Assembly: GCA_963989385.1 (NCBI GenBank)
Contig: OZ022500.1
Location: 107,673,842-107,737,841, forward strand
Source: Ctena decussata
Lineage: Eukaryota > Mollusca > Bivalvia > Lucinida > Lucinidae
DNA: 64,000 nt
Reading direction: 5' to 3'
This document shows, one piece after another, positions 8,655 through 35,883 of this stretch. The translations under genes were made by a program, and so were the position numbers. Below the pieces are notes generated by a model. That model was not told where the DNA came from, did no database searches, and saw only the letters and a program-made list of their open reading frames with translations. Within the stretch, counting starts at the first letter, position 1, and every line of letters starts with the position of its first letter.

Positions 8655-8739
8655 CACACTGGTCTGGCATTCAACACGGGTAACGAAGACAACGTCCAGG
8701 TTTCGTAATTCCTACGTCTAGCCAACGACGAAAATGGCG
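8655..8739 (+). repeat. Left 85-bp terminal inverted repeat of the giant element
   Basis: This begins CACACTGGTCTGGCATTCAA and runs to ...AAATGGCG. It is identical to the reverse complement of 35799-35883. The first ~40 bases match the ends of the smaller elements at 5229-7034 and 54858-55264 with about three differences, while bases 41-85 are specific to the giant element in this window. A GGGGCGAATCGGT block just inside (about 8750-8762) is also repeated at the other end. Confidence 0.9.
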
Positions 8740-9510
8740 GATTTTAATGGGGGCGAATCGGTCATAACACATTCAATTATTGATTTTTACGTATTGTAAA
8801 GGGTATCAATTATGCCAATACTCTTACGGACCCCAGAAATTATGCTCGATTTTATTGAGAATATCCAAAAACGGCCACAAAGATGCATGAGGGAGAAATG
8901 CAAGATCCCGCGAGACAGCTACTGCTGCTATCACTAGGGAAAGTATGATTCTTAGATTCTAGCTCTGTTTAACTGCCTTTATCACTATAGTCCAGTCAAA
9001 TTGTGGGTGAACCTAAAACAAATTGCAACAAAAGGTTTCTTTGCAGTAATAAGCTCCTAAGACCTATATTTTTAACATACTAAAAGTAGGACAAAATCGG
9101 AGAATGCGAAACTTGATTTTTTTCATATGTCTTGTTTTTGAAGGGTTTAAACCATTGCACAGCTACTTTGGGTCCGAAAGCCACTTCTAAACATCATTTC
9201 TAAACAAGTTAAATCCATAGAATGTGTTGATAAAACAGTTATCTTCTGTTCTTTAGCTTTTGTCTACCATTAAATTTGCTGATTTTGCATAACCGGTCGA
9301 TCATATAGTATATCACTATTGGTTTACCCCACCCACCAGTGCAAATTTTGCTTTTACCATAACCTCTATTCAGATGGATAATATGGATGGTAATAAAGAT
9401 AGTAAACAGAATCAATGTTTTTAAATGAAGACTGTGACAGAAAAATAGAAGAAAACAGCTTGATGTAACTCCTATTTATCAAATGACGGGACATCAGAGA
9501 GTCATGTTTT

Positions 9511-9765
9511 GTTGATTCACGTCCACGGTAAACAGCCACGGTCGGGACGGTCAATTAACCTATCGACACTATTCTTTGGCCGGCTTAGACCTCCTATGCG
9601 GTTAAGCAGTACTAAGTGCGCATACTTTCGCTAGTAACTGACAACTTTCCTTCCTGAATCAACGGAAGGAGAAACGGAAGTAAGTAGCCGGACCGGGTAT
9701 CGAACACAGGACCTTTGGCTCTTGAGTCAGACGCGCTACCGACTGCACTATGTGGCCCGGCTAAA
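9511..9765 (-). mobile_element. tRNA-derived SINE (family D), copy 1
   Basis: Read on the minus strand it begins with a tRNA-like head whose box B is the complement of GGGTATCGAACACAGG (about 9694). It ends with the CGTCCACGGTAAACAGC tail. Two more copies are at 33911-34190 and 44763-45032. Confidence 0.75.
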
Positions 9766-10074
9766 TACTTCATATGTTGAAAGGATAATCCACTAGAGGG
9801 TTAAATATGCAGATAGTAAGTAAAGTAAGTAAGGTCTTTATTTAAAGAAGGTAACTCAATTGGCGAACCAATCTCCCTTGAGGCCCTCTGATAAGCCACA
9901 TAAGATAACTTGGACATGCTTTGGGATATTAGGTGATGACTTCCATGACATTTTTGCATTCACAAATGGTAAAATGTTTACTTTGTTAGTTCAAAATTTA
10001 CAAATTATACCTCCTTCCCGCCTAACAGCCACCTCCCCACCCCGCCCACACCTCTGGAAAGAAGTCATTGTTTT

Positions 10075-10560
10075 AGCTCGCCTGAAAGACTTTCAGGAAG
10101 AGCTATTGTTGTCGGTGTCGGCCTCCGCGTTTGCACCCGCGTCCATGTCCACCTTTTGGGTGTTATAGGTTATTTAAACACCCATATCTCTTAACCCATT
10201 GATAGCCTAAGTTGATACTTTCACTTATGCTAGATAATGGTCTTACGTTTTACACCCTTGCCCCTCAGTGACCTTGAGGTCTAGGTCATGGAATTGGAAA
10301 TTTCATGTTAAAATATGGGATGTTCTTTAAGGTTCTGGCTCACCTATCACGGTGAGCTTAAAGTATAGCCTTGGTCCGTAGTCCATCGTCGTCTTCCACA
10401 CTTAAAAACATACCCCCTAAAACAATCTTGATCAAAATTTATGTGTAGCATTGTTGGGGTGGGGGATTGACTGCATAAGGTTATAGGGCAGATCAGATTG
10501 GAGCTCTGGTTGCCATGACAACATAAAGCTCCCATAGACTTATAATGAGAAAAACTTAAA
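10075..10560. repeat. Leader of a mollusc GCTCACC/GGTGAGC repeat family
   Basis: It begins TTTTAGCTCGCCTGAAAGAC and contains CTCACCTATCACGGTGAGCT (10341-10360). This is a dispersed element of the kind also seen at 14535-14800 and 57960-59290. It leads directly into the tandem array that follows. Confidence 0.55.
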
Positions 10561-11950
10561 AAATCTTCTTCCCTGAAACCATGAGGCCCAGAGCTTATAT
10601 ATTTAGTATGTAGCAATGTTTAGTGGTCCCCTACATCACTCCTTCCAATCCATCCCCTGAGGGTCCAAACTGGTCCCATCATAGGGGCCCATTGGTTTAT
10701 ATAGGGCTATATAGCTAAAGAACCTTCAAAAATTTTCCACTCTGAAACCATGAGGTCCAGAGCTCACATATTTAGTATGTAGCAATGGTTAGTGGTCACG
10801 TACATAAATCCTGCCAACCATACCTCTGGGGTCCAAATTGGCCACCCCCAGGGGTTATTAGCTCCCATAGACTTAAAATGATAAAAACTTTAAAAATCAT
10901 CTTCTCTGAAACCATGAGGCCCAGAGCTGATACAAATATACACAAACCCTACCAACCATGCCCCTGGGGTCCAAACTGGCCCCATCCCAGGGGGTCATTT
11001 GTGTATATAGGGCTTATAGCTAAAGAACCTTCAAACATTTTCCTCTCTGAAACCATGAGACCCAGAGCTTACATATTTAGTATGTAGCAATGGTTAGTGG
11101 TCACGTACATAAATCCTGCCAAGCATGCCCCTAGGGTCCAAATTGGCCACGCCCCAGGGGCATTAGCTCCCATTGTCCTATGAAGTGAAAACCTTAAAAA
11201 AAATCTTCTCTGAAACCATGAGGCCCAGAGCTTAAACATTTAGTATGTAGCATTGTTAAGTGGTCCCCTGCCAACCATGCCCATGGGTCCAAACTTGCCC
11301 CACCCCAGGGGTCATATGTTATATAGGGCTATACAGCTGAGAACCTTCAAAATCTTTTCTCTGAAACCATGAGGCCCAGAGCTCACATATTTAGTATATA
11401 GCAATGGTTAGCAATAGTTAGTGGTCACGTACATAAATCCTGCCAACCATGCCCCTGGGATCCAAATTGCACCCCCCCCCCACCCCTGGGATTTATCATT
11501 GGCTCTTATAGACTTATAATGGGAAAAACTTAAAAAAAATCTTCATCTCTGAAACCGTGAGGCCCAGAGCTTATATATTTATTTAGTATGTAGCAATGTT
11601 TAGTGGTCCCCTACATAACTCCTGCCAATCAAGCCCCTGGGGTCCAAACTGGCCCCTCCCCAGGGGGGTCATTTGTTTATATAGAGCTATATCGCTAAAG
11701 AACCTTCAAAAATCTTCTTCTCTGATACCATGAGGCCCAGAGCTTACATATTTAGTATTTAGCAATGTTTAATTGTCACGTAAAAAAATCCTGCTAACCA
11801 TGCCCCTAGGGCCCAAATTGGCCACGCCCCAGGGGTCATTAGCTCCCATAGACTTATAATGGGAAAAATCTTTTAAAAAAATTATCTTCTCTGAAACCAT
11901 GAGGCCCAGAGCTTACATAATTAGGACTTAGCAATGTTTAGTGGTCCCGT
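10560..11950. repeat. Tandem array of ~165-bp units alternating in two types
   Basis: At least nine units start CTCTGAAACCATGAGG (about 10571, 10741, 10906, 11045, 11208, 11360, 11548, 11722, 11890). They continue CCCAGAGCTTACATATTTAG and a TCCAAACTGGCC...CCAGGGG block. Alternate units end either TTAGCTCCCATAGACTTA or ATATAGGGCTATAGCTAAAG, giving a ~330-bp higher-order period. The short open frames across it are by-products. Confidence 0.85.
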
Positions 11951-13350
11951 TCATAAATCCTGCCGAGGAGATTTACAAAGACTATTCATAAGTATGTTGC
12001 ACTGTTTGTGTTATTATGCATGTAGTATTCTGCTCTTTGTGCCTTTGTTTTGGGCTTCTCATGCCTTCAGAGATCAGTATTCTAAATTGAAGCATGTTTA
12101 TGCTAAGCAAAGTCATCAGTATGATATATTTCTTGTTGCAGTTTAGTTACTGACCTTCAAAAATTCACTTCAGATTTTAAGGCAGAATAAAGTGGGTGGG
12201 GTAATTCATACCATTTTTAGACCTAGATGGCTTTATATTCAACAAGAAAATGTGCCAAATTTAATCTTAAGCTTCTAGATTCAATTCTGGCAGAGGCAGA
12301 ATAGGTTTTTAGAAATAAAACACACAGCAATAATGTTATGTCACATAAAACATTACAAATAATTGGTATATTTAAGTCGCAAATAGGCGCATGTAAAAAT
12401 GCAGAAAAAATATATTTTGCATTATCCGATTTTATCCTACTTTTGATATGTCATATGTGAATGTTAGTCCTCAACAAAAATGCAAAAAAAGCTTTTGTTG
12501 CAATTTGTTTTGGGTTTAGTGAAAAAAATCGCCAGTTTGCCTGGACTACTATATTCAGCTGCTGATTTTTTTATGCGAACTTGGAGCAGTATGAGTAGTT
12601 GCCTGTTATGTAAATTTATTTGAATGTCATTGTCTCTATATGCATATATTGCTATTTTTTCATTACAACGACCATGCCAACGTAATCAATACAGCGCGGA
12701 AATAACGAAGTTAACTTTTATTTCACATTTAAAGTGATTAAACTGCAAAAATGTTTACGTATGGCGGGTTCAAAAGTGACAGGTGTAATTAACGCGGCAC
12801 TATAAGCCATAAACATGAAGTGATTCTAAGTCATTCGATGGATATCAGCTGTAAAAGTTCACTTCAGATGGGGCCTTGCTTTTCAGTGAAACACTAGCGA
12901 GTCTAAAACGGGACTGCTCGTCAGTTGCGCCACAGAGGCTTGAAATAATAGTTTCTGTATAGCAAACAAAGACCTAGCTACTAATGACAATGATTTCCTC
13001 GTCAGACTTTTATAAAATAAGGTACCCCAAATAGTTTAACCAAGGGTTCCTCCCCTTGTATATAAATAAATACAATCGGTATCCTTTCACCCATACCAAA
13101 TCTAATTCTGGCCCCTATGGCGGCGCACACCAGTAAGGAATTTACTGCTTGGTAATTTGTGCAATTGAGTCCTTATAGCAAACACAGCTGAACCATTATC
13201 CATCTTACAATGACAAACAAGTGCAGCGTGAATGAATTATAGCTGGTAAAAACTCACTAGTTGTAAAATTATTTTTCATGTCACACACGTTTCCTTAAAC
13301 GGTTATGGACGGACACATGGTGCCTCATACTGCGGACATGAGAACGTACA
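11950..13350. other. No gene seen
   Basis: AT-rich DNA without recognised ends. The open frame at 11934-12146 starts inside the tandem array and has no coding character. Confidence 0.4.
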
Positions 13351-13376
13351 TCATAGGTGCAGGGAGTGTGTGTGTG

Positions 13377-13394
13377 TGGGGGGGGGGGGGGGGA
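13377..13394. repeat. Poly-G run
   Basis: A TGTGTGTG tract runs into an uninterrupted G run and then GAGAGAG. It is an assembly-sensitive simple repeat. Confidence 0.9.
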
Positions 13395-13431
13395 GAGAGA
13401 ATTTTACAACAATTCTACAATTATGTTTCTC

Positions 13432-13712
13432 GATTACTCTAATAAGTTCTGAATAGTTAGATCCTTTGAATGCTAGGAACACATCAAAGAAACGAAAATA
13501 GCAGAATTGTTTGAGTCTCTTCTTGACCAGTAATGAAATGTGCCACACCGCCAACGCTCCCGCCCCCTTCCCCAATTACTCTAATTAGTTCTGAATAATT
13601 AGTTCCTTTATAAGCTAGGAATACATCAAAGAAATGAAAATAGCAGAATCAATTAGATGAATCTGTTCATAGCCAGTGACGAAACGTGCCACATCAACAA
13701 CGCCCCCGGCCC
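13432..13712. repeat. ~143-bp tandem duplication
   Basis: Two copies share ATTACTCTAATAAGTTCTGA, CATCAAAGAAACGAAAATAG, AATGTGCCACA and a CCGCCCCC tail. They start at about 13432 and 13576. Divergence is moderate, roughly one difference per ten bases by eye. Confidence 0.85.
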
Positions 13713-13890
13713 TTCCCTCTTCCAGCCACGCCACCACCCCACCGCCATTTTCCTAACACCGGCTTGAGCAGATAGACCCCCCTCCAAAAAAAAAATCTAA
13801 ATGAACTCAATGATCCGAAAGGACCAGAAAATATAATCTGAACTAGTGTAGTCAGTCTTTCCGCAAAACGGTTCCCCTTTGTTATATAAA

Positions 13891-14126
13891 TGAGCCGCGA
13901 CACGAGAAAACCAACAATGTGGTTGTGCGGCCAGCGCAGACTCAGATCAGTCTGGCCATCCACCTAGCCCGATCAGACTCTTCACTAAGCGCTTAAAGGG
14001 TAGCCAAGGGTCTAAGCTACCTTCATGCGGACAGCGAAGACTCTGATCAGACTGGGCGGATGCCCAGGCTGATCTGTGTCTGCGCTGGGCGCACGATCAC
14101 ATTGTTGGTTTTGTCGTGTCGCGGCT
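13891..14126. mobile_element. Fold-back MITE, family A
   Basis: A full-length ~236-bp palindrome runs from TGAGCCGCGACACGA to GTCGTGTCGCGGCT, with internal CAGACTCAGATCAG and CTGATCAGACTGGGCGGATG. It is non-coding. The 61-codon antisense frame is a by-product. Confidence 0.92.
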
Positions 14127-14534
14127 AAAATATCGGTTGCAGGTTCAGTGTGACGTTGAATCTTTAAAGTGTGACGCCAAAAGGTGTTGGATTGCAACCA
14201 TGTTTTTTAATACTTTACTACCCTGATATTATTTTGGTTAGTCTAGATCTTAATTTTTACTAGGAGTAACCGTAGTTATTATTTATTTATTTTTGATGTA
14301 CAGAGCATGTTAATGTGCTTGAGACAGGTCTTCGAAATGAGTCACAAACAAGCAGTGAAACACGCATGCACTGTACCAGTGGCGGCCCTTAACGTTACCA
14401 TGCGCTGATTGATGCATTTTGCAAACCTTTTTTGTGAATTTAAGCTATAAATAATCACTAGCCGTTCTGATATTGTGGTCTGTGTCATATTTTGTTCGGA
14501 TTATAAGTCCAAGTGATTCCACTATGTAAGGGTC

Positions 14535-14800
14535 AAGCGTCATAGTCCCCCTGAAAAGAAATGATGTGCTGGTATGAGGGTGCCTATCAGACTACGCGGG
14601 CTATAAACCCTGAGGCCACCATTTGAACAAACTTGGTTGAGGTCCACTAGACAATGCTTCATACCAAATATCAAATCCTTAGGCCTAGTGGTTTCAGAGA
14701 AGATGTCGTTTAAAGGAAATTGTTGACGACGGACGACGGACACTGGGTGATCACAATAGCTCACCCTGAGCCTATGGCTCAGGTGAGCTAAAAAAAAAAA
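14535..14800. repeat. GGTGAGC-type dispersed repeat, 3' end
   Basis: It ends CTCACCCTGAGCCTATGGCT then CAGGTGAGC and an A-rich tail, with an upstream GACGACGGACGACGGAC block. It is related to 10075-10560 and 57960-59290. The 108-codon antisense frame lies over this repeat and is not considered a gene. Confidence 0.6.
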
Positions 14801-14945
14801 CAGAAAAAAACAAAACGCAGAGTCATTCATAACTTGGGACTGCGGAGGCACTGTAACATATTCCATCCATCTGCATCCTTTTATCGTAGCAGCCCTAATT
14901 TTATAAAGTTATCCAGGACCGAAAGTATGGTATGCGTATTACTTT

Positions 14946-15192
14946 TGACTCGCCCTTTTAGGGGGGTGGTCGGGTGGTGCGATGGTGCTGTGTGTAACTT
15001 CCAGTGCCGGGGCGTCCTTCTGATCTGGAATTGTAGGGCAAGGGCCTACTGTGCTTGCACTAGGTGCGGGTGGGGTGGTTTGGACATTTTTTCTCTCGTC
15101 TATCATTTCTCCTCTTTCTCCCTCTCTGGGAGACGGCCCGATATAGACTGAAATACTGTCTCAAAGGGTCGTTAAAACCAAAATAATCAATC
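14946..15192 (-). repeat. Family E repeat, copy 2 (inverted)
   Basis: The reverse complement of this segment matches 4866-5030 and 46707-46950, including TCTCCCAGAGAGGGAGAAAG and CAGTAGGCCCTTGCCC-type words. It is the longest copy with 46707-46950 (about 245 bp). Confidence 0.7.
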
Positions 15193-15639: not shown

Positions 15640-15765
15640 CGCCTTGAGCATCAACCCCCCCTCCCCCCGCTGTCATTGTAATTGTTAATTTGCACATTGA
15701 GCATCACTCCCCCGCCCCCAACCCCCACCCCCGCCCGCCCTTGTCATTGTTAATTTGCACGATGT
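15640..15765. repeat. C-rich duplicated segment
   Basis: TTGAGCATCA, a run of C-rich sequence and TGTCATTGT...TTAATTTGCAC are repeated twice (about 15640-15695 and 15697-15763). Confidence 0.8.
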
Positions 15766-17514: not shown

Positions 17515-17582
17515 TTTATATATATACGCCAAAAAGTACGAAAGCCTAAAACAACAGCCAAGAGAAAGAGAAAAAATAAAAT

Positions 17583-17793
17583 TGAGCCGCGACACGACAA
17601 AACCAACAATGTGGTTGTGCGCATCCGCCCAGTCTGATCAGAGTCTTCGCTGTCCGCGTGGAGGTAGCTTAGACCCTTCGCTACGATTTGAGCACTTTAC
17701 GAAGTGTCTGATCAAACTGGATGGATGCCCAGGCTGATCTGAGTCTGCGCTGGGCGCACAACCACGTTGTTGGTTTTGTCGTGTCGCGGCTCA
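17583..17793. mobile_element. Fold-back MITE, family A
   Basis: TGAGCCGCGACACGAC... to ...GTGTCGCGGCTCA, with the left arm shortened (GCGCATCCGCCC directly after TTGTGC). Confidence 0.9.
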
Positions 17794-17821
17794 GATGAGG
17801 TTATCGACCTTATGCGCAGCT

Positions 17822-17935
17822 TCGTCACGACAAAACCAACAAAGTGGCATGTCCAGCGAAGACTTAGATCAGCCTGGACACCCGCCTAGTCTGATCAGAG
17901 TATTTGCTGTGTATTAAAAGGGAAGCCAATCTTTC
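17822..17935. mobile_element. Half copy of family A MITE
   Basis: TCACGACAAAACCAACAAAG through CTAGTCTGATCAGAGTATTT matches one arm of the family. The second arm is missing. A further decayed remnant may lie at 18540-18600. Confidence 0.7.
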
Positions 17936-18656: not shown

Positions 18657-18663
18657 GAAGAAA

Positions 18664-19986
18664 ATGCATCAGTGCGACAAGTGCTGCAAGTCATACGAGA
18701 GAAAGAAATCTCTAGATAAGCACATACGTGTGCATGATGAACTAAGACCTTTTGTGTGTCACATCTGCACAAAGTCATTTGTATACAAGGACAACTTAAA
18801 ACAGCACTTAATCACCCACACAGATGCAGCTACTGAAATTTGCCCGACTTGTGGTAAAAAATTTAAACAAAGAGGTGGTCTGCATAAACACATGAGCATC
18901 CATGATCCGACAAGGTATGTGTGCGGCACTTGTGGGAAAAAGTATGATCGAAGAGAATACTTGATGGCACATGTAAATACCCACGGTGATAAACAAACAT
19001 GCAGCTCATGTGATGCTAAAGTCTTCCATTTAGACAAACACATTTGCAAGAAGGAGAGAATAGAACCTCAGTACGAGTGCCAAATTTGTAAGAAGAGGTT
19101 CAGGCAGAAAAGATACCTAAGGGAACATACAAAATATTCCCACAGTATGGCATATTCATTTGAATGCCAAAAATGTGGCAAATTTTATAATTACAGATCC
19201 AGTCTGCATAATCATAAGAAGAGGTTCAGGCAGAAAAGATACCTAAGGGAACATACAAAATATTCCCACAGTATGGCATATTCATTTGAATGCCAAAAAT
19301 GTGGCAAATTTTTTAATTACGGATCCAGTCTGCATAATCATAAGAAATTCTGTGAGACACAGTCTCAAGTAGCGGCCCATACTGAAACATTGCCTCTGTC
19401 TCCTGTTCAAGTTCAGGCTCAGGATCGTACTTATGCCCAAACTGAAACACAGCCTCCATCTCCTGTTCATTTTCAGGCTCAGGATCGTACTTGTGCTATG
19501 ACTGAAGCAAAGACTCGTGTTCTGGATCATGTTCAGACTCAGGATCACGATTATTCCCAGCCTAAAACATGTATTTTTGCACCGATTCATGTTCAGACCG
19601 AAGATCAGAGTTGTGCTCAGACTGGAACACAGATTTATCCACAGGCTCATCTTCAGACTAAGGATTGCGTTGCTGCCGAGATAAAAGGACTTAGTCATTC
19701 TCAGGCTCATGATACATCTAAGACTCAGCAATATGAGTATGTTCAGAATGAAATGCAGCGTCATCCTCAGTCTAATGTTCAGATACAGGATCATGCTTGT
19801 GCTTGGATTTATCACAGTCCCAATTTTCGAATTTTGTTCAGACCCAGGATCGTACGTTTGCACAGACTGAAACACTGCCTTATGATCTGGTTTCTGTTCA
19901 GGCTCAGGATAGTTCTTTTAGCCAACCTGAAACACCTCTTCTATCCCCATTTTATATTCAGGCGCAAAATCATACTAATGCCCTGA
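18664..19986 (+). CDS. C2H2 zinc-finger protein with internal duplication and repeat tail
   Basis: Residues 1-24 form the first finger (C4, C7, H20, H24). Three more canonical fingers follow (FVCHIC..., EICPTC..., YVCGTC...), then a shortened finger (TCSSCDAKVFHLDKHIC) and two or three fingers with the pattern YECQIC/FECQKC. A 42-residue block beginning KKRFRQKRYL is duplicated in tandem, fusing the end of one finger to the middle of another. From about residue 235 a glutamine/threonine-rich 20-residue repeat (QTETLPLSPVQVQAQDRTYA) begins. The exon starts after a strong TTTTTCTTTGTTTCAG acceptor ending at 18656, so the ATG may be internal and upstream exons may exist. After about 19800 the frame is lost by one base and the last ~60 codons are out-of-frame repeat. 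The role is presumably nucleic-acid binding; the target is unknown. Confidence 0.72.
   Translation: MHQCDKCCKSYERKKSLDKHIRVHDELRPFVCHICTKSFVYKDNLKQHLITHTDAATEICPTCGKKFKQRGGLHKHMSIHDPTRYVCGTCGKKYDRREYLMAHVNTHGDKQTCSSCDAKVFHLDKHICKKERIEPQYECQICKKRFRQKRYLREHTKYSHSMAYSFECQKCGKFYNYRSSLHNHKKRFRQKRYLREHTKYSHSMAYSFECQKCGKFFNYGSSLHNHKKFCETQSQVAAHTETLPLSPVQVQAQDRTYAQTETQPPSPVHFQAQDRTCAMTEAKTRVLDHVQTQDHDYSQPKTCIFAPIHVQTEDQSCAQTGTQIYPQAHLQTKDCVAAEIKGLSHSQAHDTSKTQQYEYVQNEMQRHPQSNVQIQDHACAWIYHSPNFRILFRPRIVRLHRLKHCLMIWFLFRLRIVLLANLKHLFYPHFIFRRKIILMP
19090..19341 (+). repeat. 126-bp tandem duplication inside the zinc-finger exon
   Basis: 19090-19215 and 19216-19341 are nearly identical copies (two obvious base differences, giving Y to F and R to G). 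The frame is kept because 126 is divisible by three. The duplication adds one finger and creates a hybrid finger whose normal second histidine region runs into a second copy of RFRQKRYLREHTKYSH. The low divergence indicates a recent event. Confidence 0.92.
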
Positions 19987-21100
19987 CTGAAAAACTCGCT
20001 CATTCACCGGTTCTGGCTCAAGATCTGGCTAATGTTCAGACAGAAACACTGCCTAATAAACCATTTAATGTTCAGACTGAGGACCAGAATTATATCCAGA
20101 CTGAAACACTGCCTCATTCACCAATAAATGTTCAGAGAAAGGTTCGTGCTTATGACCAGGCTGAAACCCTGCCTCTTTTACCGCTGAGTGTTCACACTGA
20201 GGATCTGGCTTATGTCCAGACTGAAACACTGCCTCATTCAGCTCTAAATCTTCAGGGATATGGTTTGGCTTATGCCCAGACCGAAACACTGTCCCCTTCA
20301 CTACTTAAGAATCAGTCTCAGGACTTGGCTTCTGTCCCGACAGAAACACTGGCTCAGTCACCACTTGCTGTTCCGACTCATGATCTGGCTTATGCACAGA
20401 CTGAAACTCTGCCTCATTCGCCACTACATCTTCAGACACATGATTTGGCTTACGTCCAGACTGATCCACTGTCCAAGTCACTGCTTCAGATTCAATCTCA
20501 GGATTTGGCACACACCTAGACTGACACAGCCTAGTTCACCATTAATTGTTCAGACTCAGAACCTGGCTTATGCCTAGACTAAAACACTAGTACCATCTCA
20601 TTCACCGCTTAATGTGCTAGAATATGGTTTGGCTCAAGCCCACACTTCACATTTAATCTCGACTAAAATGCCTCATTCTCTATTTACTGTTCAGATTCAG
20701 GATCTTGCTTAAGCCCAGATTGAAACACTGCCTTATTCTCAGATTTAGACTTAGACTCGGGATCTGGTTTATGACCAGACTAAAACAATGCCTCATTCAC
20801 CTCTTAATGTTCAAATTCAAAATCACGCTTTTGCCCACACTGAATTACTTCCTCTTTCACCACTTAATGTTCAGTTAAGATCACACGTTTGTCCACACCA
20901 AAGCACTTTCTTATACATCTTTCTTGTTTAGACTCAGGATCGTGATTATACCCACACCAAAACAGTATCTCGCGTTCCGCATTGTCTTCTGACCCAGGGT
21001 CATACTTATGTTTAGACAGATACACAAACTAAGTCCTCTTTTCCTGTTCATATCGCGGATTATGATTAGGCTCATCCTGCAGCGCAGACAGGTACAACCA
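19375..21100 (+). repeat. 60-bp coding minisatellite, about 28 units
   Basis: The unit is close to GTTCAGACTCAGGATCGTAC followed by TTATGCCCAGACTGAAACAC and TGCCTCATTCACCGCTTAAT. Units up to about 19780 are open in the zinc-finger frame. A unit at about 19809-19837 is 29 rather than 30 bases in its second half, shifting the frame. The repeat then stays open in the new frame to a TAG at 20517-20519. Beyond that, units acquire many stops, often CAG changed to TAG, and small indels, up to about 21100. Because 60 is a multiple of three, long antisense frames also appear across it. Confidence 0.9.
19797..20519 (+). pseudogene. Frame-shifted continuation of the zinc-finger repeat tail
   Basis: After the one-base loss near 19809-19837 the 20-residue repeat resumes in this frame (VQTQDRTFAQTETLP..., ...TETLPHSPLHLQTHDLAYVQ) and ends at TAG 20517-20519. 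It has no zinc finger and would be translated only if the lesion is a sequence error or is bypassed. The rising number of disrupted units past 20519 suggests this stop, or one near it, was the original C-terminus. Confidence 0.7.
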
Positions 21101-23645: not shown

Positions 23646-23856
23646 CTATTCATCATCATTTTTAATAGCCTTTTCATCGTAGTCCTCACCATAACCAGCT
23701 CGTACTGTTGACAAAAGCTTTGTTTCGTTACATGTATAAAATGTATGGCGCATAGGCCGCTGTCCTTTAGGGGGAGCATCAAGGTCTTTGGTAATTTCAC
23801 CCAACTTTCGGCGAACCTTGGTCCGTCTTCGATTCGTCTTGTCAAATGTATGATTC
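23646..23856 (-). CDS. Terminal exon (211 nt) of the YqaJ-family gene
   Basis: It follows a TGTTTCCAG acceptor and reads NHTFDKTNRRRTKVRRKLGE... to ...AGYGEDYDEKAIKNDDE and a TAG at 23648-23646. The lysine/arginine-rich start and acidic end are typical of a C-terminal tail. A longer open frame of 119 codons covers the same bases in a different frame and lacks coding character, so I prefer the spliced frame. No polyadenylation signal was confidently placed. Confidence 0.65.
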
Positions 23857-25640: not shown

Positions 25641-25775
25641 CTAGGTTCTATGGTCTCTAAACAGTCGAATTTTCGTCCGGGGTCTTGGATACACCTCATC
25701 TTGTCCTTGCTAAGAGAAATTTCGCCTTCTGTATGTGGATACACTGAAGACCTTGATGTCTTCATATGAAATCCT
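25641..25775 (-). CDS. Internal exon (135 nt) of the YqaJ-family gene
   Basis: It is bounded by a TTTCAG acceptor (just above 25775) and a GTGGGT donor (just below 25641). With one leading and two trailing bases it encodes 44 whole codons (GFHMKTSRSSVYPHTEGEIS then LSKDKMRCIQDPGRKFDCLE). Its phases match the donor at 26980 and the acceptor at 23856. The intron to the previous exon (25776-26979) holds three MITE-like insertions; the intron to the next (23857-25640) holds a SINE. Confidence 0.65.
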
Positions 25776-25973: not shown

Positions 25974-26021
25974 TATACTTTTGTCACTCTCGCGTGACTG
26001 CATAACTAGTAGTAGAATATT

Positions 26022-26264
26022 TGAGCCGCGACACGACAAAACCAACGAAGTGGCATGTGCGCCCATCAAAGACTCAGATCAGCCTGGGTATCTGCCCAGT
26101 CCGACCAGAATCTTCGCTGTGTGCTTTAAGGGTAACTAAGGGACTACGCTACCTCGACGCCAACAGCGAAGAATCTGATCAGACTGATCATATGTCCAGG
26201 CTGATCTTAGTCGGCATCAGCTGGGCGCACAACCACTTTGTTGGTTTTGTCATGTCGCTACTCA
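26022..26264. mobile_element. Fold-back MITE, family A
   Basis: TGAGCCGCGACACGACAAAA to CATGTCGCTACTCA, full length. The 149-codon open frame beginning here is MITE-derived. Confidence 0.9.
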
Positions 26265-26703
26265 CTTCACATTGTGTTTTATTCTTTTCTTTTACGTTGG
26301 ATTCACAGAAGTGGGTTAATTTCAGAAATGCATGCAAGTCAGTGGATGTTCAGAAAAGGGTGAAATACTTTTGGCCTCCGACTGTAAACCCCTTACGGCT
26401 TTACTCCCCATGTGAGCTATTCACTTTAATAGACATCGTTTACATACTAGGGGACCGAATAAACCGTTGATATAAATAAAAATCACTCACATAATTTTCA
26501 CCTGAGAATTGAATTCGCGTCCAACAGGCGTGGGTGTGGCTATTTATAGTTCATGTTAAAAATACACTGTTGACTTCTACAGCGGCTTTATTGTCTTAGC
26601 TCTTGTGAAAAAGATAATATGGGTGGATGGATGGCTGAATTGCAACTTAACGTTTTATTAAACAATATATCAGGACGACCGGAGGGTTATGATGATAGAC
26701 TGT

Positions 26704-26979: not shown

Positions 26980-27272
26980 CTCTCAGGGTTGCACTTGTAA
27001 GTCATAACTTCTGCGAGGCTTGACATGATTCTTGGTATATCTTTAGCCTTTACGGACATGGTGTTGTTGACGTTCATATCCTGAATAATCCCAACACACG
27101 TCTCTGCGGGTAAACTACTCGCAGTCCTGACACAGTAAGATGACCCACCGCACATACCGTACAGCTGCAGTTTCGATTCAATACCGGAAACAAACCCTTC
27201 AAACGATACAACTGACCATCCCTTTATGTATTTCGTTGGTGGTGGAAAGCACCCAAAAATCGACGTCTTTCA
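26980..27272 (-). CDS. 3' end of the large exon in the shifted frame, ending at a GTAAGT donor
   Basis: The 866-codon frame stops at 27199, but the +1 frame is open from about 27270. From 27227 it reads GWSVVSFEGFVSGIESKL...LYGMCGGSSYCVR..., a convincing continuation after the HK just before it. It ends CCT GAG AG|GTAAGT with the donor immediately after 26980. One surplus base near 27225-27235 (AAAGGGATGG) explains the shift. Cysteines are frequent (CGG, CVR, CVG, KCNPE), but no known domain was recognised. Confidence 0.7.
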
Positions 27273-29986
27273 ATAAATAATCACGTAACTGTAGCCAGCG
27301 GTCGATTCTATCATTTATATCTATTGCCGGAATATCCTCTGCCTCGTACCACCTACGTATTAATCTACAAAAATTTGCCTCATTTCTATATCCTATTTTT
27401 ATCATTTCTGTTTCAACTTCTTCAGAGAAATGTGTTTGAGCAAAGGCGTTTGATTGTTTATCGACTAAATGGTCTACAAGTGCAGGCGTCAGTTTTGTTT
27501 TGTAAGACCTAGCGACTTCTTTCCATGCTTTAGGTGAAATATTTTGTAGACCGACAGTACTAGTTCTTATCCTGAGATTCGACAGCAAATGATGTGAATC
27601 AATACACTTGCAAAGAAGTTCATCTGTGGCTGGATTAACCTCCGGATTAGAATACCAGTCTATGTCAATATCTCTCTCTGTTGTTTTTATTTTAGATGTC
27701 ACGACACGTTCGTTTTTCCATTTTTCGAGCTCAGAGGGAAACAAATACTGGGCGTATGCGATGTAGAGAACGGATTTCGGCACTTTCCTACTTCTCAGAA
27801 TTCTTTCAGCTAATGTCTTCAGAAAAGGAACTTGAAATGTCCGTTTTCGCTTTTTTGGCACAGCTTTTGAACAGTCTCCAATAGACTGAGAAATAGCATT
27901 TATCTTTTTATCCTTTGTCCACGTTTTGTTATAGTTAAAATTCACATTTTGCTGAATGATACCAGTGATGAGATCTAATTCCGCTCTTATGAAGTTTGCA
28001 AGTCCTTCTGCGTTTTTCAGCATTTGACTCAGTTCTATTAGTGAAAATTTCTTCCATTTTTCACTCCTTTTGCTCTCTCGAAGGCTCGATAAAATATGGC
28101 TGTAGTCCTTTTCTTGGAGGGTATAACGGTCATTAATACTGTTTTCAACTACTGTAACCTTATCTCTTCTGAAACTAGAAGACTGGTCAAGGTTATCTGC
28201 GATGGAATTGCTCTCGTTTTCTTCGTGGTTGTTTGATTCGTCTGTTTGACCAGGATTATCAACTGTCTGCCCAATAATGTAGTGCTCAGTATTCAAACTC
28301 TCCGAGTGATTGGTAGAGTCAGAATCGTCTTCAAAAAGATCATTCAACGGCATCACAATACCTTCTCCTTCAGGGTTTTCTTCACATTGGCTGTGTTGAT
28401 TGCGGACTAGTTCCTCTATTTCGTTCCCTATGCTGTTTACGGCACTGATGAGTTCATCATCGCCACTTGACGATATAATTGCCATTATATCGTCAGGAAT
28501 CCAGTCGTATGTCACAGATTTTGTCTCTGGTGTGTCCATGAAGATTTCAGTCTGATTCTCTCCCCTTTCAGAGTCGTCTGGTTTTCGTAGCCAGTACATC
28601 TGAGCTGTTCTAGTTCGTACAGTTTGGAATGCATGTCCAGTTGAAGAGACCGTTAGAGTTCCAGATTTCTGTATTACCGAAATACCTTCAATGCTTTCCT
28701 TATCAGGCCTCAGCGTCACACAGTTTAATTGTTTCAATTTATCAATGATTTCTTTCTTTTTCATTTTTGTTATCGAGCCCCAAACGTCTTTTTGAAACTG
28801 GATTTTTGTCAGTGGTTTGCCCGCAGAATCGCGTACAAGCAGACCGTACCATTGGCCATCAAATGCAAGAAGCGGAATTTTCAAGCCATACTTCATGCAT
28901 TCTTGTAAAACATAATTACTGGCTTTTCGCAGCTGATCTGAAGTAAACTTGTAATCTTTCAGTCCGAACGCTATAGGCATGGAATTTGGTAACTCTGATG
29001 ACCAACTACGATCCTTGTTTGATATCACCCACACCATTACTTCATTTGCTTTCCTTCGGGAAAGCTGGTGACCAGTCCGCAAGACTGTCTCAGATTCATC
29101 CAATGCCATTCTAAGATCGCTTAATATTTCCTCTATCTCTCTAATTTCTTTAGATTTCCTTGTGGTTCTGTAATAGGCGGTTTCTGTATCGACGTCATTA
29201 TTATTTTCATTTGACATGCGGATAGAGTGTATTTCAGCCAGCAACCTTACTTTAGAATCACAGTAGTTCTTGATTTTTAATTTCAATTCCCTTGTGATTT
29301 GTTTCAGTTTTTTCGGCCGTAATGGTTCATCATTGCCGTATAAGTCATCTATCTCTGTCTTAATTGATTGCCACAAATCTTCATCAAAATCAAGTTCAAA
29401 AAAAGTTGAGCTATCTTTCGTGTAGCATACAAACAGAAGCTGCTTTACAGATAAAGCATACATTTCACTTAGACACTGACAAACATAGTAACTTGGAATT
29501 TCGTAGTATATGTTTTCTCGCCTTTCTTTGGGAAAAGGGCATTTTATTTCTACTGTAGACACGCATATTGCATCGTCCATTGTAGAAGTATTGGACAATC
29601 GTAGACTTCCGTCTGGCGAAACTTCAATGAGTATGTCTTTTTGCGAACCGCTTAGCAAATAACAACCTTCTTCTACGTAACATAGTTGTGGACAGAACAT
29701 TGGCAAAAACTTTCCAACCATTGTAGCCATTGCATTAGGTTCATTCATTACACCGTGTTCAAAATATTTCTTCACTTCATCTGTCACAGGCATTATCAAA
29801 CCTTTGATTTTTTTTATCGAAATGAGCTTTCTGCTCCTTTAAAGACCTTAAACCGATCGCACTGTGAATGCTACTACCAGTTACCGGCGCAGAAGCCCGA
29901 ACTGTATGCCACATATCACTTCGCTGCTTGATTAAACGTGTTGGTAATGGTTGATCTTGACAGTCAACATCTTTCAACTGAAACAT
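27199..29986 (-). CDS. YqaJ-like PD-(D/E)XK nuclease and C-terminal region, one +1 frameshift
   Basis: The first 69 codons (29986-29777) contain RSDMWHTVRASAPVTGSS, the N-terminal arginine/tryptophan strand of YqaJ-type exonucleases. The rest lies in another frame from 29799, an 866-codon run. With the 866-codon numbering the nuclease motifs are E20-P21 (MNEPNA), S61-P-D63-G64, E84-I-K86 and a following YYVCQ (104-108), so the catalytic set appears complete. Around 296-345 is a KIPLLAFDGQWYGL...KPLT block, then an acidic, serine-rich linker (about 485-545) and a helical C-terminal part with CIDSHHLLSNLR. The frame change falls in an A8 run near 29805-29812, one base too long. Nearby in-frame sequence extends upstream to about 30066 without an ATG, supporting continuity with the preceding segment. 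Confidence 0.8.
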
Positions 29987-30170
29987 ATTTGTTTGGCTTT
30001 TTGGGTTAACTTCGTCGGCGACACAGAAATTATGGGATGTTAAATTAAGTTCACTGCCAATTTGACATAATTAATTTTCCAACATTACGCAGTGCTGTTT
30101 CAAGAAACTGTCTGACACGATACAAAAACGCTTGGATTCCACTGATTGCAAATACAAATTTAGACGTCTT

Positions 30171-31277
30171 CTAATCCTGACCGGCGCGTTCTTTTAACTG
30201 CTGCAGTCCATACTCTTGTTTCTTTTGAAGAGTTCTACTTTCTTTCAGTCTTATTGTCACAAAATATATCAGTACCTTCATCAAATCCACAATACTAAAC
30301 AGCTGTCTTCTTTCTAGATCACGTTTTGCATCAATAGAAGCGACCATACTGTTAATATCACATATGAGGGCTACCTCTTTTTCTAATCTTGTGCGATTTT
30401 CTTCTACAGTCGGAGAATTATCAAAGCCAAACATATCTACGTCACCATGTTCACCGTCTAATCCTGATGTAACTTTCTTCCCGTCTACACAAAGCATATT
30501 GATCTTACTAAAATCACTTGATTCAACAGTTCGTAGTACCTCGTGCATCAATCCTGGTTTAATATAATTTGGAATACTCCCAGCACCATCAAGAAGCACA
30601 CAGCGAGCTGGTACTGCAAAATTTATAGCGGATGAATCCGGCTGAAGCAATGTTCGTTTTGTTTCTTTAGTCAAAATCTGTCCTTCAAATCGAGGGCCAG
30701 CCATGAAAGACAAAAATTTTCCATGAAAAAGCCGATAGCCCGCCCTCCAGAATGCCTTTGTTTCATTCCAATACCACATCGTGTTTACTGATGCACATGA
30801 GAACCACCTAACGGTTTCCAGCCATAGTCTAAAGGCTATATTTGTCAGAGGATATTTACGTTTCTTTATGAGATTAAAAAATATTGTCAGATAAAACAAA
30901 AGCCCAGCACTGGCTAATATGGTTGCCACTTCCATATCAGTTGCGATCTCCATATATTCTTTCATTTCAGGAGTTAACGTTTCGCTCGCTTCATCAAAAA
31001 GTATATTTTCTTCTATCACTAAAGTTTGTTTTTTGCATGGTGACGGTGAGGTAAGTAATTTTAACTTTTTGCGCGATGCTTTTTTATGTGAAGAAACGGG
31101 AGTAAGCTTTCTTTTGAACGTTGCACAGCATGTTGGAAACATTTTGGAAGGTGTTCTCGTCGGTGTTTTACAAGGAGTTCGTTGAATAGTATTGGAACGT
31201 TTGTACTGACTGTGTACCACTTTCATCTTCTTCGGCCTCTTCAGCCACAGGAAGACACTTCTTTTTCGCTTGCCCAT
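30171..31277 (-). CDS. N-terminal part of the YqaJ-family protein (368 codons, then TAG)
   Basis: The start ATG at 31277 has a G at -3 and +4 and an in-frame TAA nine bases upstream, so it is a credible initiator. Residues 1-75 are strongly basic, with nuclear-localisation-like KRKR, RPKKMK and RKKLK clusters. Residues 105-200 are helical and aromatic-rich (MWYW at 167-170, AFWRAGYRLFHGKF at about 175-188). Residues 262-284 carry DGKK (265-268) and GDVD (278-281), which look like a conserved signature. After the TAG at 30173-30171 the same frame stays open for another ~35 codons of coding character (FVFAISGIQAFLYRVRQF), so the TAG looks like a premature stop rather than the true end. The function is unknown; DNA binding or catalysis by the DGKK/GDVD region is only a guess. 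Confidence 0.7.
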   Translation of the reverse strand: MGKRKRSVFLWLKRPKKMKVVHSQYKRSNTIQRTPCKTPTRTPSKMFPTCCATFKRKLTPVSSHKKASRKKLKLLTSPSPCKKQTLVIEENILFDEASETLTPEMKEYMEIATDMEVATILASAGLLFYLTIFFNLIKKRKYPLTNIAFRLWLETVRWFSCASVNTMWYWNETKAFWRAGYRLFHGKFLSFMAGPRFEGQILTKETKRTLLQPDSSAINFAVPARCVLLDGAGSIPNYIKPGLMHEVLRTVESSDFSKINMLCVDGKKVTSGLDGEHGDVDMFGFDNSPTVEENRTRLEKEVALICDINSMVASIDAKRDLERRQLFSIVDLMKVLIYFVTIRLKESRTLQKKQEYGLQQLKERAGQD

Positions 31278-32551
31278 GTCTGGTTATACCTTGGTGAATT
31301 TGGAACTACGACAGATACTGACTACTGAAATGTCAAATTAAAAATAGAAAATAAGCTTCTCACAGTTAGTAAGCAAAACAAAACAAAAAAAAAAAAGAAA
31401 AAAGGAATACGTTGCATTAACACGCCGGGTAAACTATCAAAGGTAGCTCCGACGGCGGTACATGAAAAATCGGTTGTGACAGGCATCCGGAAGGGCATGT
31501 GATTAGCAAAACATTGACATTAAAGGGTACTAGTAGGTGTCCGTCTTTTCTTAAAAATATATGATAACCATGGAGTTTATTGAAAATCAAATAGTGCTTT
31601 TCGACCCTTGAAAATATAAAGTTTTGTTATCTGTCATACCAACCACCACTTTTCATGAATATGAAAGATACAGCTGTAAGTGCCTTTGAGGTCAGACAGA
31701 AGTACACATAAGAAACGTTTTGATCGAAAGATTTCCTAAATGCAATTTTCATTCTTACGAATCCGTTTCTTACGGCGCACTGACATAAAAGTAAGGCCCT
31801 GTCCCAACCTTTATATAGACAATCTGCAAATAAGGCTGGACTCTCTGGAAAAAATGGAGGTGACTGTGATGGCAAGGTCTGCAAAAAAACCTTCAGCTTT
31901 AAGCTATATTTTACTTAAAACTCAGACAACGACATGCAATCATAGGCGCATCCATTAATTTTTAAAAGTATCCAGCCTTATTTTGGGATAGTCGACATTT
32001 ATATTTGAGGCAGGAACTTTATTTTTCATAAGTTTTACAAGACAAACGGATTCGTAAGCATGACAATTACATTTAGGACTTCAAACAACCGAAAAGTTTT
32101 CGCTTTGTGTATTTCTGGCTGACTTTGAAGCGATTTCAAACGTCGCATTTTTCTTGTACATGGAAAGTTCTTGGGGATATGACGGATGACAAAACTATAT
32201 AAGGGTCAAATAACACTCTTTGATTTTTAATCCCCGGTTTTATGTATTTTATCAAAACACGGGTGTCTTCCTTTTATTGTCACTTTTTGCCAAGCACAGG
32301 CCAGTCTGGATGAATGTCACAACCGATTTTATTACCTCCGTCGGAGGTACCTGTGAAAGTTTACTAGGCGTGGTTAAGCAGGCGTATGAAAAGACGATAG
32401 TCTGTACAGAAAAAAAAAATAGTATCCATGAGTATTTCAAAAATAAAAGTACAACAATATGTTTTAGTTGAAATTCATAAACGGTTTCAATTCAAATAAC
32501 ATTTTTTCATTACCTGCTTCTGGCATTGTATATATAATATGCTACTATAAT
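31278..32551. other. Upstream flank of the YqaJ gene
   Basis: This 1.3 kb holds the promoter side of the gene if the start at 31277 is right. An A-rich run lies at 31378-31402. No TATA box or repeat was confidently identified, and open frames of 60-85 codons have no coding character. Confidence 0.4.
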
Positions 32552-32776
32552 TGAGCCACGACACGAGTAAAGCACAAAATGGTTGTGCGCACAGCACAGA
32601 CTCAGATTAGCCTTGGCATCCACCCAGTCAGATCAGGGTCTTCACAGTGCGCTTATTGGGTAGCTAAGGGTCTAAGCTACCTCCATGCGGACAGCGAAGA
32701 CTCTGATCAGACTGGGCGAATCTGAGTCTGCGCTGGGCGCACAACCACTTTGTTGGTTTTCTTGTGCAGCGGCTCA
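32552..32776. mobile_element. Fold-back MITE, family A
   Basis: TGAGCCACGACACGAG to CTTGTGCAGCGGCTCA with both arms. It is slightly shortened in the right arm. Confidence 0.9.
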
Positions 32777-33034
32777 TATGTATTCTAAAACTAAGACTGA
32801 CTTGTCATAGCGGCATGGATCTTAGCGGAAGTTGGCATCTATTGACCCATTTATGCCCAGTGGACTAGACCTCCTATTCTGTCTTCATCAAATGAGTATG
32901 TTCATTTGACAGTTAAGGGGTTTCCCAGGTTCAGTTTATCTTTAAAGAGTAAAGAGTAATACCCATTTGACTTAATAAGACAAAGCCTTTATTTAAGGGT
33001 CAAGAATATATAAGTAAACTGCCGAAATTAATTA

Positions 33035-33128
33035 CGTGCGTTGCGAAAGACTGGCGAAGCGGGGGATCGAACCTACGATCTCTGTATTGGTAGTCTTCCG
33101 CCTTAGCCTCTGTACTACTGCATGCCGC
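33035..33128 (-). mobile_element. tRNA-derived SINE head
   Basis: On the minus strand it contains GTAGGTTCGATCCCCCGC (box B) and a degenerate box A near 33120. No long tail is visible. Confidence 0.5.
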
Positions 33129-33135
33129 TTCTACA

Positions 33136-33138
33136 CGA

Positions 33139-33168
<30 letters not shown>
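33136..33168. repeat. GA microsatellite
   Basis: GAGAGAGAGA... grading into GACAGAGACAGAGACG. It adjoins the left end of a family B element. A second GA/GACAGA tract is at 33336-33390. Confidence 0.9.
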
Positions 33169-33169
<1 letters not shown>

Positions 33170-33305
33170 GGCAAGACGTCGAAATGACGTAGACGTGACG
33201 TCAAATCGACGTCATGCAGATATTGCAGCACGTGCCGTCGAAATGACGTTACGTCGACGTTGATTCGACGTAATCACGTAGCATCGGCGTCATGTGCCTG
33301 TTGGG
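33169..33305. mobile_element. Family B MITE with truncated left end
   Basis: Iterated GACGTCGAAATGACGT, GTGACGTCAAATCGACGTC and GACGTTGATTCGACG, ending CATGTGCCTGTTGGG. The left CCCAGC end is replaced by the GA tract. It has both GACGTC and GTTGATTC core words, bridging the two subfamilies. Confidence 0.8.
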
Positions 33306-33483
33306 ACTGGCCAAACTTTAGCTACATTCTTCACAGAGAGAGAGAGAGATACAGACAGAAAGACGGACAGACAGCGAGAGAGACAAGCACTTTCATATAC
33401 GTAATAAACTAGGGATGGTGGAAAAATATGTTCCTCCCAATCAGGGTTCACAGGACTTTTCAAAAACACATGGACTTCATACA

Positions 33484-33514
33484 TGGGGGTGGGGGGGTGG
33501 GGGGGTGGGGGGGG
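33484..33514. repeat. G-rich simple repeat
   Basis: GGGGGTGGGGGGGTGGGGGG-type tract, potentially quadruplex-forming. Confidence 0.85.
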
Positions 33515-33710
33515 AGAGAAATACAGTATCACTTGTATTTATGATCAGAATGAAATTTCGATGTCCAGATGGACTATGGGTTTGGAATCAGAGAAGGATA
33601 TGGCAGCGAAAGGAGAGGGATGGGCTCCGCCTTTCCTATGCTTTACCCAAGATACAGTGGGTCTCTGACCTCGGCTGCCCCTACGAAGACTACGAGAAGC
33701 TTTACCTTTA

Positions 33711-33819
33711 CCCAGCAGGCACACAACGTTGAATCAACATTGAATCAACCTTGATTCAACATAATGACGTTGAATTAAGGTTGAATCAAAGTTTAATTGA
33801 ATGTTATTTGCCGTATGGG
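33711..33819. mobile_element. Family B MITE, GTTGAATCAAC subfamily, TA-flanked
   Basis: CCCAGCAGGCACACAACGTT... to ...TTATTTGCCGTATGGG with TA on both sides. The core iterates GTTGAATCAAC and TTGATTCAAC. Confidence 0.88.
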
Positions 33820-33910
33820 TACCTATCCCGCCGTCTTTGGAATTCAGGCTTTCACTACACATAGCCTTTCATCTCAATATGACTGAAATCCGACTGAAAA
33901 GGACACTTAC

Positions 33911-34190
33911 TGACTGATTGACTAAACCGTTGCTTAACGTCCACGGTAAACAGCTATGGTCATGTCGAGACGGTCAGTTAACCTAACCACACTATTCCTG
34001 GGCAGGCTTAGACATCCTAAGCGGGAAACCAGTAACCAGTACTAAGTGCACATATTTTCGCCAGTAACTGACAACTGCCCTTCTTGGATCAGCGGAAGCA
34101 GAAACGAAAGTATGTGGTCAGACCGGGTATCGAACCTAGGACCTCTGTCTTGTAAGTCAGTTACAATACCTATGCCATCTGGCTATCATG
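33911..34190 (-). mobile_element. tRNA-derived SINE (family D), copy 2
   Basis: The head on the minus strand has the complement of GGGTATCGAACCTAGG as box B; the tail is TAACGTCCACGGTAAACAGC. It matches 9511-9765 and 44763-45032. Confidence 0.8.
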
Positions 34191-34589
34191 AGCAAAACGG
34201 GAAAAACCTAAGTCTACCAAATTAGCCTGCGTATACGCGCAGTTTGATAACGATCATCACTGTCTGCTTTCACAGCCATTGTGCCAGAAAACAACAAAAC
34301 CTGTGATCAGGCTGCGTAAGTGCGCAGGCTGATCCGAACTTTCGTTGTCCGCACATGCCCCAAAAGACCATTTTTTCCTCATAGCACGGCGTTTTATGAT
34401 TTGATATTGCCCTGTTAGCGTAACGAAGTACAACCCCAACTGGCCTTTACGGCCAGTTGGCTATGGAAAACTTTTAGCTTTTTTACCCATTAGTCATATG
34501 CAGCGTCTGGTCTGGATCTGTACCGCTGATTTATGTCCAGTGTGTGGTTTGCTGGGCTTTAATTGGGGCAATTTGGAAAAAGGTGTCAT

Positions 34590-34805
34590 AGGTTTTGCAG
34601 CAGAGGTAGAGGCGTACAGGTTTGACAGCACAGTTGGAGAAAAGAACACAGACCTTTGAGATGATCTGCTACCGAAGACTAATGAACATTTTGTACAAGG
34701 ATCACGTAACCAATGAGGTTGGCAGAAAGATCCAAGCCGCCATTGGAGAATATGATGAATTCCTGGCCATGGTCAAGAAACGGAATCTAAGGTGGTCCTT
34801 TTTCA
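34590..34805 (+). pseudogene. RTE-like LINE reverse-transcriptase C-terminal fragment
   Basis: The open frame from 34622 starts MTAQLEKRTQTFEMICYRRL and continues HVTNEVGRKIQAAIGEYDEF, the conserved segment after the reverse-transcriptase domain of RTE-type LINEs. The matching segment is encoded in reverse near 41500-41640. After about residue 60 the frame runs into G-rich sequence and is no longer element-like, so the 126-codon frame is not a gene. Confidence 0.75.
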
Positions 34806-35798
34806 GGACACGGGAGGGGGGAGGGGAGAGGGGGCGGGGCGAGGCGAGGCGGAAGAGGTGCGCTCGCGAGGTAATACGTACATGTAGGCGCTACGTATCA
34901 TTTGTCTGCAGCTACCTATCTCGCGAAAAGGTTCGGAGAGGGATGCCCGTTGCTTTCATAGACTTGCCCATTACCTTTTCCTATCGATTTTTTGGGGTTT
35001 AGTGGCAGTGAAGAAATTAAATACAGAAATGCGTGACTGTTGTACTAAATTTGATAAAGGTACATATATATTATGCAATGTCCATGACGTTTGGACAACG
35101 TTGGGTAGACGTTGTTCCATCGTCGTGTGCTCACTGTGGATCAGGCTGTTACAAGTTTGGTAAAATGGCTGGCATTTAATAATTCTATCATATACAGTCG
35201 AAAAATATTGCAAATCAACATAATGACGCCAAACTGACTGACTACATATTAGCGAGTCATGGAGCAATAAACGGCATAAACATTTCATTGTCACATATGA
35301 CAGTTGTTAAAAACTAAAGTAAACGGTAAATTGGTGCAAAATATCTGTACTGGGCTCTGGAAACTGCTTATTTAACCTTTTTATTAAAAATCTTCGTTAT
35401 TTTTCCGCTGTACTGGACTCGTTGCTAGGGGCGTTGTACTGAAAATTCCTTAATTACAGCGCTATTACCGACTCCAGATACAAAAATGGTATTTTATTCA
35501 TTTTAAGTATTCAGTATCTTCGTTCGCACAGCAAAAACAATTTTCCAAAACATCTCATTTTATCAGTTAGGCGTCATTTTCTTTCTGTTCATGTAGAAAA
35601 GACACTGTAAAGCAAACGCCTCTCAACGGAGATTCAGCACTACAATTAAACGTGCGTGCAAAAGCAGAAAATACCAATACATACCAAACGCATGATAATT
35701 TTAGCGGTCCGTAAGGCATTTATTATAGGGTAAAACTGATGCATTTCATTACAATGGGTAAACAAAGTTTACTTACCGATTCGCCCCCTCACAATAGT
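34806..35798. other. Right interior of the giant element, no gene seen
   Basis: G-rich sequence at 34806-34860, then AT-rich DNA up to the right inverted repeat. The open frames are short. A subterminal GGTCCGTAAGG word at about 35706 mirrors the left end. Confidence 0.45.
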
Positions 35799-35883
35799 CG
35801 CCATTTTCGTCGTTGGCTAGACGTAGGAATTACGAAACCTGGACGTTGTCTTCGTTACCCGTGTTGAATGCCAGACCAGTGTG
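35799..35883 (-). repeat. Right 85-bp terminal inverted repeat of the giant element
   Basis: The reverse complement of this segment is identical to 8655-8739. Just inside it lies the inverted GGGGCGAATCGGT block (about 35774-35787), and further in is a GGTCCGTAAGG word near 35706 that mirrors CTTACGGACC near 8822. Outside it the sequence AACTG repeats the bases before the left end. Confidence 0.9.

What the first reader, a model, noticed from the sequence alone, without database searches (positions are those of the whole stretch)
8655..35883. A 27.2-kb TIR transposon with perfect 85-bp ends and a 5-bp target duplication, and no recognisable transposase
Seen directly: inverted ends identical over 85 bases and AACTG on both outer flanks. 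Established: large animal TIR elements known to me (Mavericks/Polintons, Teratorn-like) carry signature genes that are missing here, and Maverick duplications are usually 6 bp. Inference: this is a giant element of an undescribed or poorly described group whose interior genes are a YqaJ-nuclease protein and a zinc-finger protein. Identical ends suggest recent movement or recent end exchange, although many MITEs lie inside.
Basis: partly seen in the sequence, partly recalled or inferred. Interest (0 to 1): 0.93.

Follow-up and report, generated by a model that had tools for sequence, protein, structure and literature searches.

The report
Giant P-type transposon with added nuclease
This is a real, many-copy giant jumping gene of a probable clam, and its large "unknown" protein looks like a relative of the fruit-fly P-element cutting enzyme with a second DNA-cutting enzyme built into the middle of it.

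Summary
In detail: 85-bp identical inverted ends at 8655-8739 and 35799-35883, flanked by AACTG. Of 40 scored genomic left ends, 27 have a scored right end in correct orientation 5.7-27.2 kb away, against 0 with strands reversed. Of 25 pairs read at both borders, 19 have exact 5-bp duplications, 3 have 6-bp and 3 none clean. A 24.3-kb sibling on C6 is collinear at 98.9% of aligned sites.

The parts
8650..8654 (.). left target-site duplication AACTG
   Evidence: sequence
8655..8739 (+). left 85-bp terminal inverted repeat, starts CACACTGG
8990..12547 (.). nested 3.56-kb insertion with short imperfect inverted ends, absent from the sibling copy on C6
18664..20519 (+). C2H2 zinc-finger gene; 590-codon open frame in the C6 sibling, split in two overlapping frames in the window copy
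23646..23856 (-). predicted exon 3 of the transposase (after TTTCCAG, ends at a stop); homologous to the Mercenaria protein tail
   Evidence: splice sites read by eye
25641..25775 (-). predicted exon 2 of the transposase (RGFHMKTSRSSVYP...)
   Evidence: splice sites read by eye
26980..31277 (-). exon 1 of the P-fold transposase with embedded YqaJ nuclease; covers the 866-aa and 368-aa ORFs; three frame breaks in the window copy, one 1433-codon open frame in the C6 sibling; GTAAGT donor after the last codons
   Evidence: fold from the C6 sibling's protein
35799..35883 (-). right 85-bp terminal inverted repeat
35884..35888 (.). right target-site duplication AACTG
   Evidence: sequence
5229..7034 (.). 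1.8-kb short relative with about 41-46 bp of the same terminal repeat and AATCT duplications
54858..55264 (.). 0.4-kb short relative (MITE-like) with about 41 bp of the same terminal repeat and TGTTT duplications

Best explanation
A giant cut-and-paste DNA transposon (core about 24 kb) moved by its own protein of about 1,500 aa. That protein is a P-element-type RNase H transposase in which a lambda-exonuclease/YqaJ-type PD-(D/E)XK nuclease is inserted after the first catalytic strand of the fold (between strands 1 and 2 by my numbering). The transposase would bind the 85-bp ends, cut and join the transferred strands with its D267/D807/E1392 site at positions 5 (sometimes 6) bp apart on the target, and use the embedded nuclease to cut or trim the other strand at the transposon or donor end. 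Shown: the ends, the duplications, the paired copies, two collinear long copies, the conserved protein and its predicted fold. Inferred: that this protein moves the element, which strand the nuclease acts on, the splicing, and any role of the zinc-finger protein.
Against: PF21787 matches are all weak: 6 of 25 members at E<=1, best 0.0064; the five seen in detail score 13.5-16.3 bits against a cut-off of 24.6. Foldseek alone showed no P-element chain in its 50 displayed rows of 120 matches; the match came from the second-look aligner, which prints no residue map, so the pairing of D267/D807/E1392 with D230/D303/E531 is my reading from strand order. One model only: a second, distant homologue could not be folded. 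Nothing proves that this protein acts on these ends; gene and ends were seen together in only two copies. No empty site among 14 joined sites compared with the fetched DNA. 3 of 25 pairs lack a clean duplication.
Confidence: 0.85

Rival explanations
1. The YqaJ/P-fold protein is a passenger; another, undetected transposase (for example a Transib/RAG-like enzyme with 5-bp duplications) moves these ends.
For: 5-bp duplications and CACACTG termini recall Transib/RAG (motifs recalled, from no call). Gene and ends were seen together in only 2 of 15 copies.
Against: In the C6 sibling's 24 kb only two frames exceed 180 codons: a C2H2 zinc-finger gene and this one (three other frames of 130-176 codons were not scanned against Pfam). 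This one has an invariant DDE site and a P-transposase fold.
Confidence: 0.1
2. An ISL2EU-like element, in which a YqaJ protein accompanies a separate DDE/THAP transposase.
For: ISL2EU is the described TIR group with a YqaJ protein (PMC4482050, passages).
Against: ISL2EU makes 2-bp AT duplications, averages about 4.8 kb and carries YqaJ on a second ORF; [quoted passage not shown]
Confidence: 0.02
3. Same element and enzyme, but the embedded nuclease is a 5'-3' exonuclease that resects the donor break to steer repair (and copy gain) rather than cutting the second strand at the ends. This is a variant of the best explanation, so its odds are not exclusive of it.
Against: No direct evidence either way; placement inside the catalytic core suits coupled end processing as well.
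Confidence: 0.4

Closest known systems
P element / THAP9 transposases (P superfamily; Drosophila P, zebrafish Pdre2, Galileo)
   Same: Predicted RNase H fold with DDE, DxxH after a late strand, a large insertion between that strand and the E-bearing helix; best structural match 6p5a/6pe2.
   Different: No THAP family matched in 25 members; 5-6 bp rather than 7-8 bp duplications; a YqaJ nuclease inserted after the first catalytic strand; 85-bp ends; core about 24 kb.
ISL2EU (PHIS group)
   Same: TIR element associated with a YqaJ nuclease.
   Different: Separate YqaJ ORF, 2-bp AT duplications, about 4.8 kb average (PMC4482050, passages).
Transib / RAG / ProtoRAG
   Different: Termini here begin CACACTG (Transib and RSS motifs recalled); closer to P transposase by fold; nuclease insert.
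Polinton/Maverick and Teratorn
   Same: Giant animal TIR DNA elements.
   Different: No polymerase- or integrase-like domain in the long ORFs scanned; mostly 5-bp duplications.
Tn7 TnsA+TnsB (bacterial; recalled)
   Same: Works like: DDE enzyme plus PD-(D/E)XK nuclease, 5-bp duplication (recalled).
   Different: Two proteins and a bacterial element; here one chain with a P-type core. Analogy only.

Membership tests
P superfamily | RNase H catalytic domain of P type | tested here: met
P superfamily | catalytic D (strand 1), D (strand 4), E (helix 4) | tested here: met
   D267 in the first strand, D807 just after the strand that follows helix 575-591, E1392 in helix 1184-1194 of the model; invariant in rows with a letter there
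P superfamily | [C/D](2)H motif right after strand 5 | tested here: met
   D1227xxH1230, 42/42 each; D1227 directly follows strand 1016-1021 of the model; motif definition from PMC8230255 (passage)
P superfamily | insertion domain between strand 5 and helix 4 | tested here: met
   about 160 mostly helical residues between them; alignment to 6p5a ends at chain residue 551, past that domain (first and last residue only)
[quoted passage not shown]
   no THAP family among the 24 Pfam families matched at E<=1 by the 25 members; caveat: an unrecognised upstream exon was not excluded and some members lack their N-terminus
P superfamily | 7-8 bp target-site duplications | tested here: not met
   5 bp in 19, 6 bp in 3, none clean in 3 of 25 pairs; 8 bp in P and Pdre2, 7-8 bp in Galileo (passages)
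P superfamily | GTP dependence | not testable with these tools
   needs biochemistry
ISL2EU | 2-bp AT duplication | tested here: not met
   5-6 bp
ISL2EU | YqaJ protein | tested here: met
   PF09588 in 22 of 25 members
Transib/RAG | 5-bp duplication | tested here: met
   19 of 25 pairs
Transib/RAG | RAG1/Transib-type transposase as closest relative | tested here: inconclusive
Polinton/Maverick | protein-primed DNA polymerase B and retroviral-type integrase | tested here: not met
   none in the 3 of 5 window ORFs of 150 aa or more scanned nor in the two long genes of the C6 sibling; short or broken remnants were not searched

The most novel reading that the evidence does not exclude
A separate superfamily of animal DNA transposons, descended from the P-transposase lineage, whose enzyme joins two different nuclease active sites (RNase H DDE and PD-(D/E)XK) in one interleaved chain and uses one for each DNA strand, a eukaryotic counterpart of Tn7's TnsA/TnsB division of labour reached by domain insertion, and able to mobilise elements of 24 kb and more.
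Probability: 0.42. Interest if true: 0.88.

Novelty: new variant of a known kind. Interest (0 to 1): 0.76.

Why it matters
P elements are a classic transposon with an unusual 17-nt staggered end cleavage (PMC7776569, passages). A lineage that keeps the P-type core but adds an intact-looking second nuclease inside it, changes the duplication length and moves more than 20 kb gives a natural experiment on how second-strand cleavage and target spacing evolve. It also gives a probable identity to animal proteins that databases call 'uncharacterized' or 'YqaJ viral recombinase domain-containing' (names shown); one clam genome paper lists YqaJ domains under endogenous viral elements (PMC7826175, passage). 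Those of this architecture are probably transposases, not viral remnants.

Tried and rejected
Maverick/Polinton: rejected on long genes scanned and on duplications. ISL2EU: rejected on duplications, size and architecture. Transib/RAG as first guess from CACACTG and 5 bp: overtaken by the fold match to P. The extra length of the C2 copy (24.0 kb): its long frames look LINE-like (judged by eye), so it is long by nesting; what fills the C208 copy (18.3 kb) was not identified; neither carries the two genes. Viral contigs (IMG/VR) scanned with alignment A1: 16 pattern matches, none a relative. PDB by sequence: nothing useful for one protein; for the profile, exonuclease hits at E 0.21-0.38 and one unrelated chain at 0.72. 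Empty sites: 14 joined flanks against the fetched DNA, none spanned; this covers a tiny part of the genome. Foldseek's 50 shown rows (of 120) list no P-element chain. Paper searches whose listings show no description of a P-type transposase with YqaJ: (open-licence PMC only; Repbase and Dfam not searchable here). I saw passages of PMC7826175, PMC10225492, PMC4482050, PMC8230255, PMC7776569, PMC6431247, PMC10983969 and PMC4168063, and only listings of the rest. Not done: a census of gene-bearing copies in the genome, because the whole-genome search stayed unreachable; AlphaFold of a distant homologue, because the queue stayed full; the borders of 2 of the 27 pairs were not read.

Full report
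WHAT IS THERE. The inverted ends 8655-8739 and 35799-35883 are 85 nt and identical, with AACTG on both outer flanks. The window lies on contig C3 of a 1.66-Gb genome in 245 contigs; the closest named protein relative is from the clam Mercenaria (49%), so a bivalve is likely but was not proven.

A REAL FAMILY. Searching the genome with 246 bp of the left end and 244 bp of the right end gave 720 and 714 first-look candidates, of which 40 each were scored. 27 of the 40 scored left ends have a scored right end on the same contig in the right orientation, 5.7 to 27.2 kb away, 17 of them at 9.1-10.9 kb; with right-end strands reversed the count is 0. I read both borders of 25 of these 27 pairs: 14 of 15 and 5 of 10 have exact 5-bp duplications, 3 have 6-bp duplications (L058/059, L064/065, L074/075), and 3 have none clean (the 5.7-kb C1 copy; L062/063, 4 bp; L066/067, offset by 2 bases). 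Two short relatives with the same outer ends sit in the window itself, 5229-7034 (AATCT duplicated) and 54858-55264 (TGTTT duplicated).

THE LONG FORM. The copy at C6:48239412-48263722 (24.3 kb) is collinear with the window copy: 98.9% of 23,582 aligned sites are identical, in blocks of 97.0-98.9% when gaps count, separated by indels of about 0.1-0.4 kb. The window copy is longer because of a 3.56-kb nested insertion at about 8990-12547. Of 15 copies compared, only these two have either gene by tblastn; the other 13 have neither and look like passengers, the 9-10 kb ones by internal deletion. The C2 copy (24.0 kb) holds LINE-like frames (judged by eye); what fills C208 was not identified.

GENES. 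In the C6 copy two frames exceed 180 codons: a C2H2 zinc-finger gene (590 codons) and, on the other strand, a 1433-codon frame with a YqaJ domain at residues 457-607 (E 1.6e-7). In the window copy this second gene changes frame at three places (near residues 404, 489 and 1345 of the C6 frame), so the ORF list shows it as 368- and 866-aa pieces. It ends in a GTAAGT splice donor, and two further small exons with plausible splice sites follow, recognised by homology to the Mercenaria protein tail.

MECHANISM. Shown: ends, duplications, copies, conserved protein, predicted fold. Inferred: the enzyme binds the 85-bp ends, its DDE site cuts and joins the transferred strands 5 (sometimes 6) bp apart, and the embedded PD-(D/E)XK nuclease handles the other strand or the donor ends. 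The strict conservation of both sites argues that both activities are needed. Whether the nuclease makes a second-strand cut (as TnsA does beside TnsB in Tn7, recalled) or resects 5' ends (as lambda exonuclease does, recalled) is open.

KNOWN OR NEW. By fold it belongs with P transposases, but two P-superfamily traits were tested and not met: a THAP domain (none in 25 members; an unseen upstream exon is not excluded) and 7-8 bp duplications (against 68, 114, 115). I therefore call it a P-fold transposase lineage, not a P element. ISL2EU also has a YqaJ protein, but as a separate ORF and with 2-bp AT duplications (PMC4482050, passages). The listings of ten paper searches show no description of this combination; Repbase and Dfam could not be searched. 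A tree of 27 proteins places the C6 sibling's protein next to an unnamed sequence, P0002, with the pair P0005 and Mercenaria P0006 close by, and shows several deep clades.

LIMITS. One structural model; no census of gene-bearing copies, since the genome search tool stayed unreachable; no empty site; no independent species in which ends and gene were seen together; no biochemistry.

Noticed in passing
window 8990-12547: 3.56-kb nested insertion, absent from the C6 sibling, with short imperfect inverted ends (about TAGTCCAGKCAAAYTG, read by eye) and no ORF of 150 aa or more; probably a separate non-autonomous DNA transposon.
   Followed up: partly
window 5229-7034 and 54858-55264: Two short elements share the outer 41-46 bp of the giant element's terminal repeat and have their own 5-bp duplications.
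   Followed up: yes
ends of 15 compared copies: Left and right ends match each other within copies (10 of 15 keep exactly 85 identical bases) even where subfamilies differ (CACGG in the window, C6a and C1a copies, CACAG in the others printed), so both ends seem to change together.
   Followed up: partly
C15a element position about 5980, and equivalents in C2 and C208: Copies differ strongly in length at one internal place, where C2 and C208 each hold about 9 kb of extra sequence with no match over 250 bases to each other; it may be an insertion hot spot.
   Followed up: no
window 13884-14133, 17577-17910, 26021-26267, 32546-32783, 61019-61268: A MITE-like repeat of inverted structure recurs several times inside and outside the element.
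   Followed up: no
window 19797-20519 and the C6 sibling's zinc-finger gene: The zinc-finger protein has a long degenerate tail of repeats (about QTETLPHSPLxVQ) that varies between the two copies; it may regulate the element or be a captured gene.
   Followed up: no
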